A model generated the notes under the pieces. That model had not been told where the DNA came from and did no database searches. It was given only the letters and a program-made list of their open reading frames with translations. A DNA stretch of 53,296 nt, taken from positions 1 to 53,296 of the forward strand of contig CALLZY010000062.1 of assembly GCA_937858715.1 (NCBI GenBank), given 5' to 3'. How positions within the stretch are numbered: position 1 is the stretch's first letter; each line of letters opens with the position of its first letter. A program made the translations under genes and the position numbers. Below, one piece after another: positions 24,404 to 34,297 of this stretch. This DNA comes from an uncultured Chitinophagaceae bacterium (GTDB taxonomy: Bacteria > Bacteroidota > Bacteroidia > Chitinophagales > Chitinophagaceae).

Positions 24404-24422
24404 TTGCAAGTAACGATAATTG

Positions 24423-24453
24423 AAAAGCTGTTCCTCAGGGAGCAGCTTTTTTT
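24423..24453 (+). terminator. Rho-independent terminator of rpsA
   Basis: AAAAGCTGTTCC pairs with GGAGCAGCTTTT (one G-U) around TCAG, followed by a T-run. Confidence 0.9.
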
Positions 24454-24459
24454 ATTATA

Positions 24460-24467
24460 TATCTTTG
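24460..24467 (+). promoter_or_regulatory. -7 box (TATCTTTG) just before the diheme peroxidase start
   Basis: TATCTTTG ends only 4 nt before the ATG at 24472 and lies directly after the rpsA terminator. Transcription would start at or within a few nt of the start codon, so the operon mRNA may be leaderless. Confidence 0.65.
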
Positions 24468-24471
24468 CCGG

Positions 24472-25521
24472 ATGTTTAAGGCCACAGTACTCATTAAAAT
24501 ATTTCTTTTCTCTATAGTGGGGTTGCTTATATATTGTACAAACCACCGCAATACTAAAACAAAAACAACCAGGGAAGTACTTGAAATTCCGGACAGCATT
24601 CCAGATTCTGTTTTTAACGATGCCGATAATTTTTTTTCAAAAGAAAAGGCAGAATTAGGCAGGTATCTTTTTTATGATAAGCGCCTTTCGGTTAACAATA
24701 CAAAGTCCTGTGCGTCCTGTCATGCCCCGCAGTTTTCTTTTACTGATTCATACAGGAGGTCGGTAGGTGTATTTGGCGATTTTACAAAACACAACTCACC
24801 GCTGCTGGTAAATATCGTTTTCAATAATTATTTTACTTATACTGACACCTCACTTCATTCACCTGAAAGGCAAATTAAAAACCCGATGTTCGGCACTGTT
24901 CCGGTTGAAATGGGGTGGGCGGGAAATGAAGATGAAATATTAGGCAGGATTAAGCAAGAGACACAGTATGTTCAGCTTTTTTCAAAAGCATTTGCTGCTG
25001 ACAGAGAAAAATTCACGGTGAAGAATGTGCAGTATGCCATTACCAGTTTTGTAAAAACGCTGATTTCATTGCACTCACCCTATGACCAATATATGAAAGG
25101 CGACAGCACCGCTTTAAGTGTTGCTGCAAAACGGGGCAAAGTGCTGTTTGAATCAAAGGAACTTAAATGCAGTTTATGTCATGGAGGAATAAATTTTAAC
25201 CGTCCTGTATTTCAGCAGTCACCTTATTTTGCAGCTGGCTTTTCCGGCGATGCAGGTAAGGATTCTCTGAGGTATAAGGTGCCGACTTTAAGAAATCTAG
25301 CATTTACGTCGCCGTACTTTAATGATGGCAGTGTTGAAATGCTTGAAGAAGTAATAAACTTTTTTGCTGCAGGTGGTAAAGCACCAAACAGGCATCCTTA
25401 TGTATCAGGTTTCAGCTTAAATTTGGAGCAGCGAAAGGATTTGGTTCTTTTTCTCCTGTCTTTGTCTGATTCATCATTTATTAAAAAAACACAGTTCCAG
25501 GATCCATGGGTAACAAAATAA
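24472..25521 (+). CDS. MauG/CCP-like diheme cytochrome c peroxidase, lipoprotein
   Basis: A 349-residue exported enzyme. The N-terminus is a lipoprotein signal (hydrophobic residues 5-21 then YC, Cys22). Two covalent heme-c sites are present: C80-x-x-C83-H84 (KSCASCHAPQFSFTD) and C233-x-x-C236-H237 (LKCSLCHGG). The order and the PMFGTVPVEMG segment between them match the CCP_MauG family. Members either reduce hydrogen peroxide or, like MauG and MbnH, oxidise tryptophans of a partner protein. It is the first gene of a three-gene operon; the next gene overlaps its last 16 bp. Nothing here separates a plain peroxidase from a modifying enzyme except context. Confidence 0.9.
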   Translation: MFKATVLIKIFLFSIVGLLIYCTNHRNTKTKTTREVLEIPDSIPDSVFNDADNFFSKEKAELGRYLFYDKRLSVNNTKSCASCHAPQFSFTDSYRRSVGVFGDFTKHNSPLLVNIVFNNYFTYTDTSLHSPERQIKNPMFGTVPVEMGWAGNEDEILGRIKQETQYVQLFSKAFAADREKFTVKNVQYAITSFVKTLISLHSPYDQYMKGDSTALSVAAKRGKVLFESKELKCSLCHGGINFNRPVFQQSPYFAAGFSGDAGKDSLRYKVPTLRNLAFTSPYFNDGSVEMLEEVINFFAAGGKAPNRHPYVSGFSLNLEQRKDLVLFLLSLSDSSFIKKTQFQDPWVTK

Positions 25522-27305
25522 TCGAACGGACGAAAATAATGTCAATTGTTTTTTCTGTTTTTTCTGTTTTTGCTGTTGTGTTCCTTTCCTGTAAGGACGG
25601 GAAAAAACCTGTCAGCAGTTTACAGGGAGATAAGTCGGTACTGGAGTCAATACTTTCATCTGCAGACTCACTTATTACTTTTCCTTTCGTAGAACAGAGG
25701 GTAAAGAAGATTAAAGAGGCGCTGCAGTTACCAAAGCCTGTCTTATTGTATCCCGACAGTGCATCGGCCAAACAACGTCTTGCAGAGATGATCGCTTTGA
25801 ATGATTCCTCTTTTACCCAGTTCCTTTTTGACCCGTTTACCAAAATGCCTTTCCGTAATGAAGTTTTTGGTATTCACCAGGCAAGGGAAAGTGATATGGC
25901 TGGTATTCCCGGTCCGCATAACCTCGCAGAGTGTTTCAGGGTGGAAATGTATAATTATGCCCTTAACAATACATCGGTTGCTATTGTGGATGCTGGAGCA
26001 CAGAAGGTACTCAACCGTTTTTATCTGAGCGATACACAACCCGACCCGCCTTACAGCCTTGTTGATTTGGCAAACGAGATTGCAATGGCTTCGCCGGAAG
26101 TAGAAAAGGCTTTAGGCTTTAAACCCACAAAAGAAAAGCTGCTGGCACAATACTATAAAACATCGCTGAACAGGACAAGGTGCGAACGCAGCAGGCATTT
26201 ATGTGTGGCGCCTACTTTTTTGCTTGGTGAAAAAACACTGTGGGCAATTGTTGACCTTACCGACCATCGCCTTGTTGGTGTAAGATGGATTACATCAGGA
26301 AAGACCGGCCCTGCCGCCCCTATACTTACAGAGAGAAAGTTGCAGGATGATAAAATATCTGCCTGTTTTTGTGAGCAGGAAACAGCACTAATAAAAGATG
26401 GCTGGGATATGAAGTATATGCTTACAAGCAGCGATGGCCTGCGGATAAGTAATGTGATGTTTAATGGAAAGCCGGTATTGCGTAATGCAAAATTGGTTGA
26501 CTGGCATGTAAACTACAGTGGCACTGATGGATTTGGGTACAGTGATGCGGTGGGATGCCCATTCTTTAGCCAGGCAGCCGTAATCGCCTGGGATCCGCCG
26601 CTTATACTCGATCTGAAAGATGATGCAAATAAAACAATCGGTTTTGTATTAGAACAATCCTATCGTTCAGAAGGATGGCCAACGCCATGCAGTTATAACT
26701 ATAAGCAGCGTTATGAGTTTTATAAAGATGGAAGGTTCAGGGTAGCTGGTGGCAGTCTGGGCAGAGGGTGCAGCAATACAGCCACATACCGGCCGGTTTT
26801 CCGGATTGCATTTGCAGGTGATGGGAATAATTTTTTTGAGTGGGGAAATACTACCTGGAACCAGTGGATGACTGAAAAATGGCAGTTGCAAAACTCATCA
26901 ACACCCTATTCACCAGAAGGATTTCAATATAAAATAGCTTCTGCCGCAGGTGGCTATTACCTTGAGCCGGGCAAAGGACAGTTTAATGATGGCGGCCGGG
27001 GTGATTTTTCTTATGTATATGTTTCAAGACATGATGGGAAAAGGGATGAAGGTGAAAGCGATTTGGTAACAATTGGCCCATGCTGTAATACCGATTATCA
27101 CCAGGGCCCCGAAAAGTTTATTGAGCCTGTAGCCGAAAGCATACAGAATAGTTCTCTTGTGGTGTGGTATGTAGCGCAGTTAAGAAACGATGATAAAGCA
27201 GGCAGTGAGTATTGCTGGGCTGAAAATAAATTGGAGAATGGTGTTTGGAATACTAAGGTGTATCCTTGTTTTGCAGGGCCAATGTTTATACCTGTAACAA
27301 AATAA
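25506..27305 (+). CDS. lipoprotein distantly like copper amine oxidase, copper histidines apparently lost
   Basis: A 599-residue lipoprotein (basic start, hydrophobic core, FLSC with Cys29). A start at 25539 is possible but leaves the signal without positive charge. Residues ~185-265 (ASPEVEKALGF ... LWAIVDLTDHRLVGVRW) resemble the small N3 domain of copper amine oxidases. Residues ~330-440 resemble the start of their catalytic domain: VNYSGTDGFGYSDAVGCP (possible base Asp347) and PCSYNYKQRYEFYKDGRFRV, where Tyr399 sits like the topaquinone tyrosine. The H-x-H copper ligands expected next are replaced by ATYRPVFRIAF. Many cysteines (226, 233, 287, 289, 351, 395, 422, 526, 527, 570, 588) suggest disulphides. 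The family call is tentative. Confidence 0.45.
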   Translation: MGNKIIERTKIMSIVFSVFSVFAVVFLSCKDGKKPVSSLQGDKSVLESILSSADSLITFPFVEQRVKKIKEALQLPKPVLLYPDSASAKQRLAEMIALNDSSFTQFLFDPFTKMPFRNEVFGIHQARESDMAGIPGPHNLAECFRVEMYNYALNNTSVAIVDAGAQKVLNRFYLSDTQPDPPYSLVDLANEIAMASPEVEKALGFKPTKEKLLAQYYKTSLNRTRCERSRHLCVAPTFLLGEKTLWAIVDLTDHRLVGVRWITSGKTGPAAPILTERKLQDDKISACFCEQETALIKDGWDMKYMLTSSDGLRISNVMFNGKPVLRNAKLVDWHVNYSGTDGFGYSDAVGCPFFSQAAVIAWDPPLILDLKDDANKTIGFVLEQSYRSEGWPTPCSYNYKQRYEFYKDGRFRVAGGSLGRGCSNTATYRPVFRIAFAGDGNNFFEWGNTTWNQWMTEKWQLQNSSTPYSPEGFQYKIASAAGGYYLEPGKGQFNDGGRGDFSYVYVSRHDGKRDEGESDLVTIGPCCNTDYHQGPEKFIEPVAESIQNSSLVVWYVAQLRNDDKAGSEYCWAENKLENGVWNTKVYPCFAGPMFIPVTK

Positions 27306-27315
27306 AACTGATTGA

Positions 27316-28227
27316 ATGAACAGATATTTCTTTCTTTTTATGATAGTCATTTCAACTTTTTTTTCCTGCAAAGAAGAAGAAGTGGATTTTTCGCTCAATA
27401 ACTGCAAAAGGAATCCTGTTTTTATTCAGTCAATGGGTTTTAATCCCGCAAAGTCTTACCTCAGTACTTCTGAAGAAAGAACTATGGGGCTGGTACTGAT
27501 TGAAGCCGAGCAGCCAGGAAATCCTCAATCCAGAAAAGTAAAAATAGTGCAGCATCCTTCATGGCGGAAAGGAGGGTGGCTGGCTCCCATTCTGCTGGAT
27601 GAAAAGGGAAATATTTTTACAGCACCGGCACCATTTATTACTGTCTATAATAACCCAATCGCAAACAATAACACCATATATAAGGTTGACAATACTACCG
27701 GAGAAATGAGTGAATTTTTGAAATTGCCATTTGCAGATTCTATTAACCCGGAAAACCCGTTTGGGATAATAGGTATGGCCTATTTATGTGAAACTCATAC
27801 TTTGTATGTGTCAACAGTAGCCGGTTCAAGGAGATATGAGGAGAGGGGTAATATTTATGCAATCAGTACTGAAAGCGGAGGGATTATTGATAAGCTCGCA
27901 GGTACAGATGCCCTTGGGCTGGGTATTTCTTATATTACCGGCAGCCGGGAATTGTATTTCGGTCTTGCCCGTAATTCGGATATTATGTCTGTGAAACTCA
28001 ACAGTAAAGGAAAGTTTTCAGGAGATGCAAAAAAGGCATTTTCACTTGCAGGCATTGGCCCAAGGGGTGATGATAAGGTAAGAAAAATCCGGTCTGACCA
28101 AAATGGAAACTTAGTCATACATGGCATGGAATTTAATTTCAACCTGATTGCGCCAAGAGAAAAGCAGGAAACCCTCTATAATTTCATATACAATAATGAT
28201 GAAAATAAATGGGAGCCCCGCAAGTAA
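27316..28227 (+). CDS. lipoprotein of unknown function, possibly beta-propeller
   Basis: A 303-residue protein with a lipoprotein signal (MNRYFFLFMIVISTFFSC). The mature part has recurring short units of the type 'label, value, turn' (GWLAPILLDEKGNIFTAPAP; NTIYKVDNTTGEMSEFLKLP; GNIYAISTESGGIIDKLAG; NSDIMSVKLNSKGKF; IRSDQNGNLVIHGMEFN) as in NHL/SMP-30-like propellers, about five blades. I do not recognise a specific family. It begins 11 bp after the copper-amine-oxidase-like gene and is surely co-transcribed, so the three lipoproteins probably act together at the envelope. Confidence 0.7.
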   Translation: MNRYFFLFMIVISTFFSCKEEEVDFSLNNCKRNPVFIQSMGFNPAKSYLSTSEERTMGLVLIEAEQPGNPQSRKVKIVQHPSWRKGGWLAPILLDEKGNIFTAPAPFITVYNNPIANNNTIYKVDNTTGEMSEFLKLPFADSINPENPFGIIGMAYLCETHTLYVSTVAGSRRYEERGNIYAISTESGGIIDKLAGTDALGLGISYITGSRELYFGLARNSDIMSVKLNSKGKFSGDAKKAFSLAGIGPRGDDKVRKIRSDQNGNLVIHGMEFNFNLIAPREKQETLYNFIYNNDENKWEPRK

Positions 28228-28633
28228 GGAGGACCATTAGTGTTGGAAAAAGAATTGTGTTACAACTTCTACTTTGAATTTTTTTCATTTACCGTGTTAA
28301 AATAGCCATTAATCTTCCAGTAAACCGCTTTTGTCTAATATTCAGATACATAAAGATCTGAGCCGTATTTTTACCTATCAAATCGTATAAATACGTAGTG
28401 GAAATAAAAAAAATATTCAGTAAAACTTGCAAGTATTAATTTTTGAAATTACCTTGCGTCTCCATCGGTATTAATACGTACCAATTCCTCTGATACCTTT
28501 TCAAATCCAGTCTTATTCTAACCTTTTGTCAGTTGCTATTCAGCAGCCTATTGATTAAAATAATAGCGTATGAATGCAGCGAAATTAAGTATTCTGTGCA
28601 GGCCGCCCTTTGAATCATAAAACGAGCATCAAA
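28228..28633. other. 406-bp intergenic region with CGTAT/ATACG palindromes
   Basis: No gene is supported. It is AT-rich and holds three related inverted-repeat sites: CGTATTTTTACC (28364-28375, imperfect), CGTATAAATACG (28384-28395, perfect arms) and GTATTAATAC (28468-28477, perfect). They could bind a dimeric regulator of the giant surface-protein gene. A good TANNTTTG box was not found, and no terminator for the upstream operon is obvious. Confidence 0.5.
28364..28477. promoter_or_regulatory. cluster of three candidate operator palindromes
   Basis: Sites at 28364-28375, 28384-28395 and 28468-28477 share CGTAT/ATACG-like halves; the first two are 20 bp apart centre to centre (two helical turns). 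All lie 157-270 bp before the surface-protein start. Confidence 0.35.
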
Positions 28634-31600
28634 ATGAAAAAAACTGCTTTTTTGCACCTGAGATCACTTTCTCTCAGAGTTGTATTAACTTTTTATGTCG
28701 TCCTTCTTAGCTTCTTATCAAAAGGACAGGTTTGTACTTGTACTGGTAATTTGGTAACCAATCCAAGTTTTGAAAGCGGAACAACAGCCTGGGGTTGGTC
28801 AGGAGGTACATTAAGTGCTGGAACCGGTGCTGTTGCCTGCGGATCAAAATCAGGCGATTTTCAGATTACAAATAATTCAAGCAACTGGGTTTCTCAAACG
28901 ATCGGAACTGATTTGCCTGTAGGAACAGTTATTAACGCCAGTGTTTATGCAGGAACTCATGATAACAGCTATTATCATGAAGTAGGTGTTTATTTCTTTG
29001 ATGCAAACTGGAACTGGCTTTCGGGGGCATCGGTTGAAGTAAACAAAGTACTTGCTAATTCGCCTGCTGGTCCCCAGCTTTATACATGGACTGCTATTGT
29101 ACCTGTCGGTACAAAATATACCCAGGTTGGATATAGCGGAAATGGTAACTGGATTAAAACTGACCAATGGTGTGTTACACTTGCCACAGGCACAACTGTT
29201 GCATTTGGCAACCAGCTTTTCGTTGACCTGAACGGTAACGGAATAAAAGACGGAAGTGACTGGGGTTATGATGGTGTAACTGTAAAGCTCTATGCAGATG
29301 CTAATGAGGACGGTGTTGCAGACGGAGCAGCACTGAAAACAACTACTACCAGCGGCGGTGGTTATTACAATTTTGCTAACCTGGCTGCCGGTAAATATCT
29401 GGCACAAATAGAAAATGCACCTTCTTGGATGTATGTAATTCCCAAAAGCGGCGGAGACCCTGATAACGATGTTGATGATGATAACAACGGACTGACTCAA
29501 TCCGGCACTACTATTAAAGGCGGCACCATCACATTAAGTGTGGGTGGGGAACCGGGCAGTACAAGCTACAATAGTACGTACGATTTTGCAGTATATAAGG
29601 ATAATGGCCTGGGTGATTATGTTTTCCTGGACGCAAATACAAATGGTATTCAGGATGCAGGTGAAGGCGGAATTGCCGGTGTAACCGTGAAACTGAAGAA
29701 TACATCCGGTACGGTACTGGCAACTACAACTACTGATGCAAACGGGTACTATTATTTTTATGACCCTAGCCAATATGGTACTACAACATATAGTATTCAA
29801 TTTGTAACACCTTCGGGTTATTCTCCTTCTCCATCTAACCAGGGCAGCGATGATTCGAAAGACAGTGATCCGGTCGGAGGAGTGATAAGTAATGTAACCG
29901 TTCCAATTGGTACATGGAATAACTCATTCGATGCTGGATTCAGCACAACCCTTTCTCTTGGAAACAGGGTTTGGTATGATGCCAACAATAACGGATTAGA
30001 CGATTCTGAGAACGGAATAGTCGGCGTAACTGTAAACCTGTATGCTGATGCTAATAATGATAATGTGGCTGATGGTGCCATTATCCAGACTAAAGTAACT
30101 GATGCAAATGGATATTACCAGTTTGACGGGCTGGCACAGGGAAATTACATTGTTGGTGTGGTTACTCCTGCAGGGTATATGAGCAGTTCGGTGAATGGAG
30201 GCGATCCTGATAACAATAACAATCTTGATGATAACGGGCAGGTTGTTGCCGGTAACGAAACGAGAGGTTTGGCCATTACACTTGCTTTTGGTACAGAACC
30301 GCTTGTTGATGGCAACACAAACCCGAACAGTAATATTACATATGATTTTGGTTTCCTGCCTGATTGCAACTGCACATCTTCTGCAAGCAATCTGCTTGTA
30401 AACGGAAGTTTTGAAAGCGGTACAACCGGATGGAGCTGGAGCGGAGGTTCTCTTACAACAGGTACCGGCTATATTGCCTGCGGTTCTGCCAACGGATTTA
30501 ATAACTGGAGCAGCGGCACTTCCAAAGTATGGCAGGATGTTACAATAGCGGCAGGATCAACTGTAACATTCAGTGCTTATGCGGGCACACATACTGCAGG
30601 TATTTCCTGCAGCCCCAAATTAAGCCTGATATTCCTTAATTCTTCTAATACAGTAATTGGACAGACAGATGTAACTGTAACAAGGGATGTGGATGTGAAT
30701 TTTAGTCAGTTGGCTTATTATTCTATTACAGCTGTTGCACCTGCAGGTACAGTTAAAGCAAGGGTGCAAAGTGCGATTACCTGCAACACTATGAAGATTG
30801 ATGCATTTTGTCTTACTGCCACCAGTCCGGTTAATGTTGGAAATTTTGTTTGGTATGACAGAAACAATAACGGAACACAGGATGCAGGTGAAACAGGTAT
30901 AAGCGGAGCGACTGTAAAAATATATCTGGATGCAAACGGTGATAATACACCTGACGGTGCAGCCATAGGAACAACCACATCAGATGCAAATGGTTTATAT
31001 TCCTTTACCGGCCTTACACCAAACAAATATATTGTTGGAGTGACCATTCCTACAGGATATGCTGCCGCAACAACCACAGCAACTTCTTCTTCTCCTGATA
31101 ATGATAATAACACAGATAATAATGGTGTGACAACATTCAGCGGAGAACTCAGAAGTAATTATATTACCCTTACGGCCGGTTCTGAACCTACAACTGATGG
31201 TGATGGCAATAATGGCAACCTGACTTTAGACTTTGGTTTGAAAGGAACAGCAAGTATTGGTGATTTTGTCTGGAATGATTTGAATGGAAATGGCATCCAG
31301 GATGCTGGAGAACCTGGTATCAGCGGAGCTACTGTTACGCTTACTTATCCTGGCGGATCCACAGCAACCGTAACTACTGATGCAAACGGTGCTTATAGCT
31401 TCACTGGTCTTGCACCGGGTTCTTATAGTGTAACGTTTACAACACCGTCAGGTTTTGTACAGTCACCTGCTGATCAGGGCAGTGATGACAGTAAAGACAG
31501 TGATCCTGTAAGTGGTGTAGTGAGCGGAATAGTTTTAACGGCTGGTCAGAACAACACTACAATTGATGCAGGCTTCCAGAGCAATCAACTCAACCTTGGT

Positions 31601-34297
31601 AATTATGTTTGGTACGACCAGAATAATAACGGATACCAGGATTCTGGTGAACAGGCAATCAGCGGTGTTACCGTAAACCTGTATAAAGATGCAAGCGGCG
31701 ACAATGTTCCGGATGGTGCTTCTGTAGCTACAACAACTACAAATGCTTCCGGTGCTTACAGCTTTAGCGGACTGACACCTGGTAATTATATTGTTGGGGT
31801 GGTTATCCCTGCCGGATATACTGCAGCAGCGGTTACGGCTACTTCCTCGTTGCCCAATAATGATAACAACACAGATAATAATGGTGTGGCAACTGTCAGT
31901 GGTGAACTGAGAAGCAATTTTATCACATTGACAACTGGTGGTGAGCCTGCTTCTGGTGTTGACGGAGATGGTACTAACGGTAACTTAACACTTGATTTTG
32001 GATTGAAAGGAACAGCTTCACTCGGTGATTTTGTTTGGAATGACCTGAACGGAAATGGTGTTCAGGATGCAGGTGAGCCTGGTATCAGCGGAGCAACGGT
32101 AACGCTGACTTATCCGAATGGTGCTACGGCTATTACCACTACAGATGCAAACGGCGCTTATGGGTTTGCTAATCTGATACCTGGAACCTACAGTGTTAGT
32201 TTCACTACTCCATCTGGGTTTATTCCGTCTCCTGCTAACCTGGGTGATGATACTAAAGACAGCGACCCTGTAAGCGGAGTGGTAAGTGGTATTGTATTAA
32301 CAGCAGGTCAAAATAATACAACCATTGATGCCGGCTTCCAGAGCAATCAGCTGAACTTAGGAAACTATGTCTGGTATGATAAGAATAATAATGGTATTCA
32401 GGATGCCGGTGAGGCAGGTATAAATGGTGTAAGTGTGAAATTGTATAAGGATTCTGATGGCAACAATATACCTGACGGAGCAGCATTGGCAACTACTACG
32501 ACAAATGCAAGCGGTGTATATAGTTTCGGTGGTTTAACACCAGGTAATTATATTGTTGGTATTACTGCCCCGGCCGGATATGCAATGGCCTTTACTACTG
32601 CAAGCAGTTTATTACCCAATAATGACAATAATACCGACAACAATGGCATAACCATTATCGGAACCGAAATTACCAGCAACTTTATTACGCTTACAACATT
32701 GAGTGAGCCGACTACCGACGGAGATGGCAGCAATGGAAACCTTACTCTCGACTTCGGTTTGAAAGGAACCGGAACAATAGGTGACTTTGTTTGGAACGAT
32801 TTGGATGGTGATGGATTCCAGGATGCTGGTGAACCAGGTATTGGCGGAGCGTCAGTTACGTTAACATATCCCGATGGTACAACCATTTCAACAAATACTG
32901 ATGCAAATGGCGGGTACAGCTTCACTAATCTTGCACCAGGCACTTATAGCGTAAGTTTCATTACTCCTTCAGGATTTGTGTCATCCCCGGCTAACCAGGG
33001 AGGTGATGACAGTAAGGATAGTGATCCGGTTGCAGGGGTGGTAAGTGGTATTAATTTGTCAGCCGGACAAACAAACCTGACTATTGATGCTGGATTCCAG
33101 AGCAACCAGTTAGTTCTTGGTAATTATGTTTGGTATGATAAAAACAATAACGGTGTTCAGGATGCAGGTGAAACGCCAATTGCAAATGCAACCGTAAGAT
33201 TATATGCTGATGCAAACGGCGATAATGCACCAGACGGCGCTGCAGTTGCCAATACATCCACAAATGCAAATGGTGAGTACAGTTTCACTGGCCTTACTCC
33301 GGGCAATTACATTGTCGGTGTTGTTCCTCCTGCGGGATACACAGCGTCAGCAACAACCGGAACAAGTACAACACCTGATAATGACAATAACACCGATAAT
33401 AACGGTGTGGCAATTGTTAGCGGAGAAATAAGAAGTAACCATATCACTCTTACAACGTTGGGTGAGCCAACAACAGACGGTGATGGCAGCAATGGAAACC
33501 TGACTCTTGATTTTGGCCTGACCGGAACTGGAAGTTTAGGAAACTTTGTATGGAGAGATTTAAATAATAATGGACTTCAGGATGCAGGTGAACCTGGAAT
33601 AGCAGGGGTGACTGTAACATTAACAAATCCCGATGGAAGTACTATAAGCACAACTACAGACGCAAATGGTGCTTACCAGTTTACGAACCTGTTACCAGGT
33701 ACTTACAGTGCAGGTTTTACAACGCCTTCTGGTTATATACCCGCAACCGCAAATGCTGGCAGTGATGATGCGATAGACAGTGATCCGGTTGGTGGAGTGG
33801 TAAGTAGTATTGTACTTACTGCCGGAGAAAGCAACCAGACTATTGATGCTGGCTTCAGAAAGCTGATTAACCTGTCTGGTAATGTATGGCATGATGTGAA
33901 TGCTATGAGTGACGGGTATGTTAACAATTCTGGTGGAACTCAAATTCCTCCTGCAACTGCAATTCCATTGTTAAGGGCATATCTGGTAAACTTTGCTACA
34001 GGGCTTGTAGAGAAAATGACTTTTGTTAATCCTGCAGATGGTCAGTATTCGTTTACAAATGTTACACCTAATACTAATTATTATGTTCTGTTGACCAGCT
34101 CTTCTGGCTCTGTAGGATTTACTCCACCTTCTTCAGTTTTGCCTTCGGGTTGGGAACATACCGGCCAAAAACTGGGGGTTATATCTGGTAGTGATGGCTT
34201 CAACGATGGACGACTAATTGTTACAGTGGGTTATACAGATGTGATTAATGCAAACTTTGGAATCAGACTAATGGGTGGGGATGTTGTAATCCCTTAA
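28634..34297 (+). CDS. giant SdrD B-like repeat surface protein
   Basis: A 1,887-residue exported protein starting at the ATG at 28634 (a TTG at 28610 is unnecessary). After the signal peptide (ends near LSKGQVC) comes a carbohydrate-binding-like domain (NLVTNPSFESGTTAWGWSGG), repeated once near residue 590 (NLLVNGSFESGTTGWSWSGG). Eleven SdrD B-type domains follow, each starting like LGNYVWYDKNNNGIQDAGE, with calcium-loop Asp/Asn patterns; they alternate between a longer form (with PDGAA and DNDNNTDNNG) and a shorter one (with SDDSKDSDPVSGVV). A different domain (NLSGNVWHDVN) closes the protein. No T9SS sorting domain or LPXTG is seen at the end (RLMGGDVVIP). Role: probably adhesin or surface-layer protein. 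Confidence 0.88.
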   Translation: MKKTAFLHLRSLSLRVVLTFYVVLLSFLSKGQVCTCTGNLVTNPSFESGTTAWGWSGGTLSAGTGAVACGSKSGDFQITNNSSNWVSQTIGTDLPVGTVINASVYAGTHDNSYYHEVGVYFFDANWNWLSGASVEVNKVLANSPAGPQLYTWTAIVPVGTKYTQVGYSGNGNWIKTDQWCVTLATGTTVAFGNQLFVDLNGNGIKDGSDWGYDGVTVKLYADANEDGVADGAALKTTTTSGGGYYNFANLAAGKYLAQIENAPSWMYVIPKSGGDPDNDVDDDNNGLTQSGTTIKGGTITLSVGGEPGSTSYNSTYDFAVYKDNGLGDYVFLDANTNGIQDAGEGGIAGVTVKLKNTSGTVLATTTTDANGYYYFYDPSQYGTTTYSIQFVTPSGYSPSPSNQGSDDSKDSDPVGGVISNVTVPIGTWNNSFDAGFSTTLSLGNRVWYDANNNGLDDSENGIVGVTVNLYADANNDNVADGAIIQTKVTDANGYYQFDGLAQGNYIVGVVTPAGYMSSSVNGGDPDNNNNLDDNGQVVAGNETRGLAITLAFGTEPLVDGNTNPNSNITYDFGFLPDCNCTSSASNLLVNGSFESGTTGWSWSGGSLTTGTGYIACGSANGFNNWSSGTSKVWQDVTIAAGSTVTFSAYAGTHTAGISCSPKLSLIFLNSSNTVIGQTDVTVTRDVDVNFSQLAYYSITAVAPAGTVKARVQSAITCNTMKIDAFCLTATSPVNVGNFVWYDRNNNGTQDAGETGISGATVKIYLDANGDNTPDGAAIGTTTSDANGLYSFTGLTPNKYIVGVTIPTGYAAATTTATSSSPDNDNNTDNNGVTTFSGELRSNYITLTAGSEPTTDGDGNNGNLTLDFGLKGTASIGDFVWNDLNGNGIQDAGEPGISGATVTLTYPGGSTATVTTDANGAYSFTGLAPGSYSVTFTTPSGFVQSPADQGSDDSKDSDPVSGVVSGIVLTAGQNNTTIDAGFQSNQLNLGNYVWYDQNNNGYQDSGEQAISGVTVNLYKDASGDNVPDGASVATTTTNASGAYSFSGLTPGNYIVGVVIPAGYTAAAVTATSSLPNNDNNTDNNGVATVSGELRSNFITLTTGGEPASGVDGDGTNGNLTLDFGLKGTASLGDFVWNDLNGNGVQDAGEPGISGATVTLTYPNGATAITTTDANGAYGFANLIPGTYSVSFTTPSGFIPSPANLGDDTKDSDPVSGVVSGIVLTAGQNNTTIDAGFQSNQLNLGNYVWYDKNNNGIQDAGEAGINGVSVKLYKDSDGNNIPDGAALATTTTNASGVYSFGGLTPGNYIVGITAPAGYAMAFTTASSLLPNNDNNTDNNGITIIGTEITSNFITLTTLSEPTTDGDGSNGNLTLDFGLKGTGTIGDFVWNDLDGDGFQDAGEPGIGGASVTLTYPDGTTISTNTDANGGYSFTNLAPGTYSVSFITPSGFVSSPANQGGDDSKDSDPVAGVVSGINLSAGQTNLTIDAGFQSNQLVLGNYVWYDKNNNGVQDAGETPIANATVRLYADANGDNAPDGAAVANTSTNANGEYSFTGLTPGNYIVGVVPPAGYTASATTGTSTTPDNDNNTDNNGVAIVSGEIRSNHITLTTLGEPTTDGDGSNGNLTLDFGLTGTGSLGNFVWRDLNNNGLQDAGEPGIAGVTVTLTNPDGSTISTTTDANGAYQFTNLLPGTYSAGFTTPSGYIPATANAGSDDAIDSDPVGGVVSSIVLTAGESNQTIDAGFRKLINLSGNVWHDVNAMSDGYVNNSGGTQIPPATAIPLLRAYLVNFATGLVEKMTFVNPADGQYSFTNVTPNTNYYVLLTSSSGSVGFTPPSSVLPSGWEHTGQKLGVISGSDGFNDGRLIVTVGYTDVINANFGIRLMGGDVVIP
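30837..33855 (+). repeat. four tandem ~760-bp coding repeats
   Basis: The units start near 30837, 31595, 32357 and 33116 (spacing 758, 762, 759 bp). Each encodes one long and one short SdrD B-like domain (~253 residues). High similarity at DNA level is visible in the GGAACCGGA, GATGCAGGTGA and TATGTTTGGTA blocks. Confidence 0.85.

What the first reader, a model, noticed from the sequence alone, without database searches (positions are those of the whole stretch)
24472..28227. Three-lipoprotein operon: MauG-like diheme oxidase, amine-oxidase-like protein, propeller-like protein
The genes overlap by 16 bp and then lie 11 bp apart, after the rpsA terminator and a fresh promoter. The first carries two CxxCH hemes of the CCP_MauG family. 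MauG makes the tryptophan tryptophylquinone cofactor and MbnH oxidises a tryptophan of MbnP, so some family members modify a neighbour-encoded protein. The neighbour here resembles a quinone (copper amine) oxidase but seems to lack the copper ligands needed to make topaquinone itself. A hypothesis is that the diheme enzyme builds or reoxidises a side-chain-derived cofactor in the second protein, with the third as binding partner, all tethered at the envelope. This is inference from context.
Basis: partly seen in the sequence, partly recalled or inferred. Interest (0 to 1): 0.8.

Follow-up and report, generated by a model that had tools for sequence, protein, structure and literature searches.

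The report
Heme enzyme beside copper-less amine-oxidase relative
A bacterial gene trio pairs a two-heme enzyme of a protein-modifying kind with a relative of copper amine oxidases that lacks copper-binding residues but keeps the tyrosine that normally becomes the built-in cofactor, which suggests, without proving it, that a heme enzyme has taken over a job done by copper.

Summary
Gene 1 is a diheme protein whose group is sister to MbnH in trees with few references. Gene 2 is a remote copper-amine-oxidase (CAO) homologue: CAO pieces recur in order above permuted controls. The tyrosine aligned with CAO's topaquinone precursor is invariant (25 of 25), yet no histidine after it is conserved, so the three-histidine copper site is gone. 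Gene 3 is weakly propeller-like.

In the window's phylum, 20 of 20 gene-2 genomes found carry gene 1, 19 in the same cluster, in three gene orders. In one family sample gene-1-grade hits occur in 12 of 12 genomes with gene 2 and 0 of 232 without. An SdrD_B surface-protein gene lies nearby at 15 of 22 loci.

Against: five proteobacterial loci carry genes 2 and 3 without gene 1; the window's own gene 1 lacks the usual tyrosine heme ligand and inter-heme tryptophan; CAO's catalytic aspartate was not located; no structure could be predicted.

Best reading: gene 1 oxidises an aromatic side chain of gene 2, perhaps Tyr397. Plausible, untested; nine paper searches found no description.

The parts
24422..24451 (+). 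terminator-like hairpin after rpsA
   Evidence: 13 pairs; 6 such sites in the scan against 5.9 expected
24472..25521 (+). gene 1, MbnH/MauG-type diheme protein, 349 aa
24709..24723 (+). first heme motif CASCH (C80-H84)
   Evidence: translation; invariant in 19 of 19
25168..25182 (+). second heme motif CSLCH (C233-H237)
   Evidence: translation; C233, C236, H237 invariant in 19 of 19
25363..25365 (+). Phe298 of gene 1 at the axial-ligand position (Tyr in 15 of 19 rows)
   Evidence: position placed by alignment and by recalled MauG numbering
25506..27305 (+). gene 2, copper-amine-oxidase-like protein without the copper histidines, 599 aa
26514..26516 (+). Tyr337, aligned with TynA Tyr369, the tyrosine that hydrogen-bonds topaquinone
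   Evidence: 25 of 25; aligned in 11 of 12 resamples
26694..26696 (+). Tyr397, aligned with the topaquinone precursor TynA Tyr466
   Evidence: 25 of 25; aligned in 11 of 12 resamples
26787..26795 (+). Tyr428-Arg429-Pro430, invariant, in the stretch where CAOs carry the His-X-His copper ligands; exact counterparts unresolved
26865..26867 (+). Trp454, 20 of 20 in rows of the window's phylum and 0 of 5 in proteobacterial rows: candidate alternative target
27316..28227 (+). gene 3, weakly propeller-like (YncE) protein, 303 aa
28610..34297 (+). giant SdrD_B-domain surface protein, usual neighbour of the trio
   Evidence: SdrD_B near 15 of 22 loci

Best explanation
Gene 1 is an extracytoplasmic diheme oxidase of the MbnH kind that, in the window's phylum, acts on the product of gene 2, a protein with a copper-amine-oxidase-like domain that has lost its copper ligands. 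Using peroxide equivalents it oxidises one or more aromatic side chains of gene 2, giving a side-chain-derived cofactor or crosslink without copper. The site with most meaning is Tyr397 (the topaquinone position); a Trp such as Trp454 is the main alternative. Gene 3 is a constant partner of gene 2, and the SdrD_B surface protein is a possible substrate or scaffold. Shown: remote homology, retained tyrosines, lost histidines, linkage and co-occurrence. Inferred: contact between the proteins, the modification, its site and any activity.
For: Gene-1 group sister to MbnH (100/98; 100/99 with three unlinked paralogues inside the group); profile hits MbnH structure 6e1c at 392 bits, next chain 178. 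Axial position Tyr in 15 of 19, Met in 0. Gene 2: CAO pieces above 40 permuted controls; Tyr397 and Tyr337 25 of 25 and aligned with the CAO active-site tyrosines in 11 of 12 resamples; no conserved His after Tyr397. Gene 1 in 20 of 20 gene-2 genomes of the phylum, 19 in the cluster, three gene orders; 12 of 12 against 0 of 232 in a family sample. The window genome has no MbnP that gene 1 could serve. Precedent: diheme genes beside the kynurenine-bearing copper proteins CorA and MopE (PMC3912023, passages).
Against: Five proteobacterial loci have genes 2 and 3 without gene 1 in the cluster, and one of those genomes has no CCP_MauG at all. The window's gene 1 has Phe at the ligand position, Tyr instead of the inter-heme Trp and a missing loop; the G560 copy has His by the same count. 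Three unlinked gene-1-group paralogues exist. The Asn before Tyr397 is Ser in the window, the acid after it is not kept in the family, and CAO's catalytic Asp was not found. The gene-2 profile found no CAO among PDB sequences. In one cited relative, loss of the diheme gene did not abolish growth and non-enzymatic Trp oxidation was suggested (PMC3912023, passages). No structure, no biochemistry.
Confidence: 0.42

Rival explanations
1. Gene 2 is a catalytically silent CAO-fold binding or scaffold protein; its conserved tyrosines and ten invariant cysteines are structural. Gene 1 modifies another target (gene 3, the SdrD_B protein) or serves the same surface structure in another way.
For: Genes 2 and 3 occur without gene 1 in five proteobacterial loci; SdrD_B gene near 15 of 22 loci in both groups; catalytic Asp not found.
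Against: Tyr337 and Tyr397 are both invariant while the histidines are not; SdrD_B is not seen at 7 of 22 loci although gene 1 is present at six of those.
Confidence: 0.25
2. Gene 1 makes a Trp-derived group in gene 2 (as MbnH does on MbnP, recalled), for example kynurenine at Trp454, to build a metal or other ligand site rather than a quinone cofactor.
For: Nearest relatives of gene 1 lie beside MbnP. Trp454 20 of 20 with gene 1 and 0 of 5 without.
Against: Only His231 and His334 are conserved, few for a metal site. Three other aromatic positions (124, 468, 586) also separate the two lineages, so ancestry may explain Trp454.
Confidence: 0.13
3. Gene 1 is an electron acceptor or peroxide-removing partner of a redox-active gene 2 rather than its maker.
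For: CCP_MauG members include peroxidases; the window copy lacks features of MauG.
Against: Tree and residues place gene 1 with MbnH, not with the Met-ligand peroxidase sampled; a common acceptor would not need such strict co-occurrence.
Confidence: 0.12

Closest known systems
MbnH-MbnP, CorB-CorA and SACCP-MopE pairs
   Same: Diheme protein of the same larger group encoded beside one partner; partner of CorA/MopE type carries an oxidised Trp (PMC3912023, passages)
   Different: Partner here is a CAO-like protein plus a propeller-like protein, not MbnP; the window genome has no MbnP
MauG and pre-methylamine dehydrogenase
   Same: CCP_MauG fold family; Tyr at the axial position in 15 of 19 rows
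   Different: Far below the TTQ_mauG cut-off (141.5 against 443.85 bits); no methylamine dehydrogenase subunit recognised in the cluster
Copper amine oxidases (TynA and kin)
   Same: Remote profile homology and both active-site tyrosines
   Different: No copper histidines; shorter active-site region; Asp base not located; ten invariant cysteines
BthA
   Same: Diheme protein without the inter-heme Trp, like the window's gene 1, that still forms bis-Fe(IV) (PMC6405878, passages)
   Different: Another subgroup; its passages seen name no CAO-like partner
YncE propeller
   Same: Partial profile match of the gene-3 family to 3vgz, E 0.00098
   Different: Window protein scores 16 bits against a cut-off of 400

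Membership tests
MbnH family (TIGR04039), gene 1 | curated whole-protein score | tested here: not met
   window 296.8 bits, cut-off 362.85; best of 19 members E 4.2e-119, bits not listed
MbnH family (TIGR04039), gene 1 | grouping with MbnH in a tree | tested here: met
   sister to four MbnH proteins, 100/98 and 100/99; few references
MbnH family (TIGR04039), gene 1 | MbnP encoded alongside | tested here: not met
   no MbnP anywhere in the window genome
MauG/MbnH-type diheme enzyme, gene 1 | two CXXCH hemes | tested here: met
   19 of 19
MauG/MbnH-type diheme enzyme, gene 1 | Tyr as axial ligand of the second heme | tested here: not met
   15 of 19 of the family have Tyr, but the window copy has Phe
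MauG/MbnH-type diheme enzyme, gene 1 | Trp between the hemes | tested here: not met
   present in 12 of 19, Tyr in the window copy
MauG/MbnH-type diheme enzyme, gene 1 | oxidises side chains of a partner protein | not testable with these tools
   needs biochemistry
Copper amine oxidase, gene 2 | homology to the enzyme domain | tested here: met
   profile comparison E 1.4e-9 locally, controls; but no CAO found by hmmsearch of PDB sequences
Copper amine oxidase, gene 2 | three copper-binding histidines | tested here: not met
   11 of 11 in the CAO set; no His column after Tyr397 is conserved in gene 2
[quoted passage not shown]
   Tyr 25 of 25, Asn 24 of 25 (Ser in the window), Asp/Glu not kept; consensus from PMC3382800 passages
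Copper amine oxidase, gene 2 | catalytic aspartate | tested here: inconclusive
   no gene-2 residue tested aligns with Asp383; Asp347 aligned elsewhere in 12 of 12 resamples, one of them a gap
YncE-type propeller, gene 3 | propeller fold | tested here: inconclusive
   partial match E 0.00098; Pfam SBBP in 4 of 16 members, weak

The most novel reading that the evidence does not exclude
A copper-amine-oxidase lineage has lost copper and has its topaquinone-like cofactor (or a related Tyr-derived quinone or Tyr-Cys link at Tyr397) installed by a dedicated MbnH-type diheme enzyme: heme-catalysed biogenesis in place of copper self-processing, within a surface module whose SdrD_B protein could be the amine (lysine) substrate.
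Probability: 0.22. Interest if true: 0.92.

Novelty: new variant of a known kind. Interest (0 to 1): 0.72.

Why it matters
In CAOs topaquinone forms from a tyrosine with bound copper (PMC3382800, passages). A relative that keeps the tyrosine, has no copper histidines and travels with an MbnH-type diheme enzyme would show that a quinone cofactor site can change from copper to heme biogenesis. It would also give MbnH-like enzymes a new kind of partner with a defined residue to test.

Tried and rejected
The gene-2 profile against PDB sequences found no CAO, only two chance-level hits. The best local profile alignment stops before the tyrosine motif; segments were therefore compared apart, with permuted and reversed controls. 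Two of the segment tests found the same 22-column C-terminal piece and are not independent.

Considered and rejected: gene 1 as an ordinary Met-ligand peroxidase (0 of 19 Met; tree). Gene 1 serving an MbnP in this genome (none found). The proteobacterial diheme proteins as gene-1 equivalents: 5 of 6 gene-2 genomes have CCP_MauG against 47 of 103 others, and all six such proteins of those genomes fall outside the gene-1 group (one, L083, on a long branch of unsure place). Asp347 as the catalytic base. SdrD_B as an obligate partner: not seen at 7 of 22 loci, six of them judged only by phmmer against the window protein, L051 by Pfam. A scan of other proteobacteria found gene 2 in 1 of 398 genomes, the centre itself.

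Literature: nine searches listed nothing on this gene set; most subscription papers are not held. The action of MbnH on MbnP is recalled, not read here. Rows dropped: L007 as a duplicate of L050 (on); L011, L038, L042 and L043, truncated, from the distance test; the six proteobacterial diheme rows from the second tree. L055, a degenerate gene-2 remnant, was listed but not counted as a locus.
Full report
What is there. Three genes lie in a row at 24472-25521, 25506-27305 and 27316-28227, after rpsA and a terminator-like hairpin. Genes 1 and 2 overlap by 16 bp; 10 bases separate genes 2 and 3. A giant SdrD_B-domain protein follows at 28610-34297.

Gene 1. CCP_MauG E 1.5e-45; best NCBIfam match the MbnH family, 296.8 bits, under its cut-off of 362.85. 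All 19 family members match that model. The family profile hits the PDB diheme enzyme 6e1c at 392 bits, the next chain at 178. In a 41-row tree the 19 gene-1 proteins form one group (96/93) that joins four MbnH proteins taken from annotated MbnP-MbnH neighbours (100/98); 12 diheme proteins beside MbnP in relatives' genomes lie outside. A 39-row tree with four further proteins, and without the six proteobacterial ones, puts three unlinked copies from one genus inside the gene-1 group (98/96; 100/99 with MbnH), so the group is not purely linked to gene 2, although those three genomes also carry the trio. At the axial-ligand position 15 of 19 have Tyr, 4 have Phe (window, L030-L032), none has Met; the one classical peroxidase among the references has Met. 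Tyr294 as the MauG ligand is from PMC7567364 (passages); its spacing is recalled. The inter-heme Trp is present in 12 of 19 and absent in 7, the window included. The window protein also lacks a loop. BthA lacks the same Trp and still forms bis-Fe(IV) (PMC6405878, passages), so activity is not excluded, but the window's copy is a poor type specimen.

Gene 2. Cu_amine_oxid is weak for the window protein (E 3.6e-4), but it hits 15 of 15 members of A3 and all 15 genomes tried, each at about positions 15-67 of the 407-position model, 6 of 15 over the cut-off. Against 11 real CAOs (TynA and ten plasmid CAOs) the local profile match has probability 96 per cent and E 1.4e-9. Full length, domain start, tyrosine motif and C-terminus scored 80.9, 37.9, 24.2 and 32.3 against the best of 40 column-permuted controls of 29.6, 22.1, 17.4 and 18.3; a longer C-terminal segment scored 32.1 against 27.3. 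Reversed controls scored 10.0 to 20.3. In 12 resampled global alignments Tyr397 fell on the topaquinone precursor Tyr466 and Tyr337 on Tyr369 in 11 each. Both are invariant, 25 of 25. The tyrosine equivalent to Tyr369 shares a proton with topaquinone (Tyr305 of HPAO-1; PMC3382800, passages; the equivalence is recalled). Copper is held by three strictly conserved histidines (same passages). In the CAO set all three are kept, 11 of 11; in gene 2 no column after Tyr397 has His in more than 13 sequences, and only His231 and His334 are conserved anywhere. So the copper site is lost whatever the exact alignment, which places the His-X-His stretch inconsistently. Not met or open: the Asn before Tyr397 (24 of 25, Ser in the window), the acid after it (not kept), the catalytic Asp. 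Ten cysteines are invariant, one of them two residues before Tyr397.

Gene 3. The family profile partly matches YncE (E 0.00098); Pfam gives only weak hits, SBBP propeller repeats in 4 of 16 members.

Distribution. Gene 2 was found in 6 of 58 relatives, 5 of 395 genomes of the phylum sample, 12 of 244 of the family sample, 3 of 3 of one other family, 6 of 109 of the order of an Arenicella MAG (one a remnant with stops) and 1 of 398 of that MAG's phylum, the MAG itself. The samples overlap and include their centres. In the window's phylum this makes 20 genomes. Gene 1 is in the same cluster in 19; in the twentieth, G560, it is on another contig and the gene-2 contig ends inside gene 2. Gene 3 is in the cluster in 18; the other two gene-2 contigs end inside gene 2. 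Of 17 complete clusters, 13 run g1-g2-g3, three g3-g1-g2 (L029, L039, L040) and one g2-g3-g1 (L041).

Co-occurrence. In the family sample the gene-1 profile gave 14 hits of 385 bits or more and one partial hit of 273 bits (G560); all lie in the 12 gene-2 genomes. The best hit in the other 232 genomes has 263.6 bits. The line was drawn after seeing the gap, at most eight candidates per genome were scored, and the profile came from linked genes; but MbnH itself reaches 392 bits with it, so MbnH-like proteins would have been seen. Pairwise distances of genes 1 and 2 correlate (r 0.932, 17 loci, 0 of 2000 shuffles as high), as shared descent alone could give.

Exceptions. Five proteobacterial loci (L050-L054) have genes 2 and 3 together without gene 1 in the neighbourhood. 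CCP_MauG occurs elsewhere in 5 of the 6 genomes with gene 2 or its remnant and in 47 of 103 others; all six such proteins of those genomes fall outside the gene-1 group, and G680 has none. So gene 2 does not always need gene 1.

SdrD_B. A Pfam-confirmed SdrD_B gene lies within about 6 kb at 15 of 22 loci with enough context, in both groups. It was not seen at L030-L032, L034, L036, L037 and L051.

How it may work. MbnH kinship, strict co-occurrence, linkage through three gene orders and a partner that keeps the cofactor tyrosine without copper ligands together favour oxidation of a gene-2 side chain by gene 1. Tyr397 has the most meaning. Trp454 is the residue whose presence best follows gene 1 (20 of 20 against 0 of 5), though three other aromatic positions also separate the lineages. 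The nearest precedent in print is the suggestion that diheme proteins beside CorA and MopE oxidise a Trp to kynurenine; the same text reports that loss of one such gene did not stop growth (PMC3912023, passages).

Verdict. The idea passes its co-occurrence test in the window's phylum and fails it outside. It is a new variant of the diheme-enzyme-and-partner theme with an unusual partner, and stays an inference until a modification is seen.

Noticed in passing
L163 6443-7492, L164 2326-3501, L165 7015-8055: Second, unlinked copies of the gene-1 group in one genus, with the Tyr ligand and inter-heme Trp, not beside gene 2. Their partner is unknown.
   Followed up: partly
L051, L053, L054, L055: Genes that look like a small PqqD-type protein and kinase- or nucleotidyltransferase-like neighbours lie upstream of gene 2 in some proteobacterial loci. 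The names are recalled from sequence look, not searched.
   Followed up: no
L055 (G690:C108): A gene-2 remnant with stop codons inside, next to the same upstream genes as L053.
   Followed up: no
L086, L088: Two proteobacterial diheme genes lie in a similar setting, just after a short secreted-protein gene; I recall methanethiol-oxidase clusters of this look, not tested.
   Followed up: no
plasmid records behind L130 and L131: Diheme genes beside MbnP are annotated 'methanobactin export MATE transporter MbnM', apparently a naming error.
   Followed up: no
window 24460-24467: TATCTTTG five to twelve bases before the gene-1 start, like a Bacteroidota -7 box (recalled), which would give a very short leader.
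   Followed up: no
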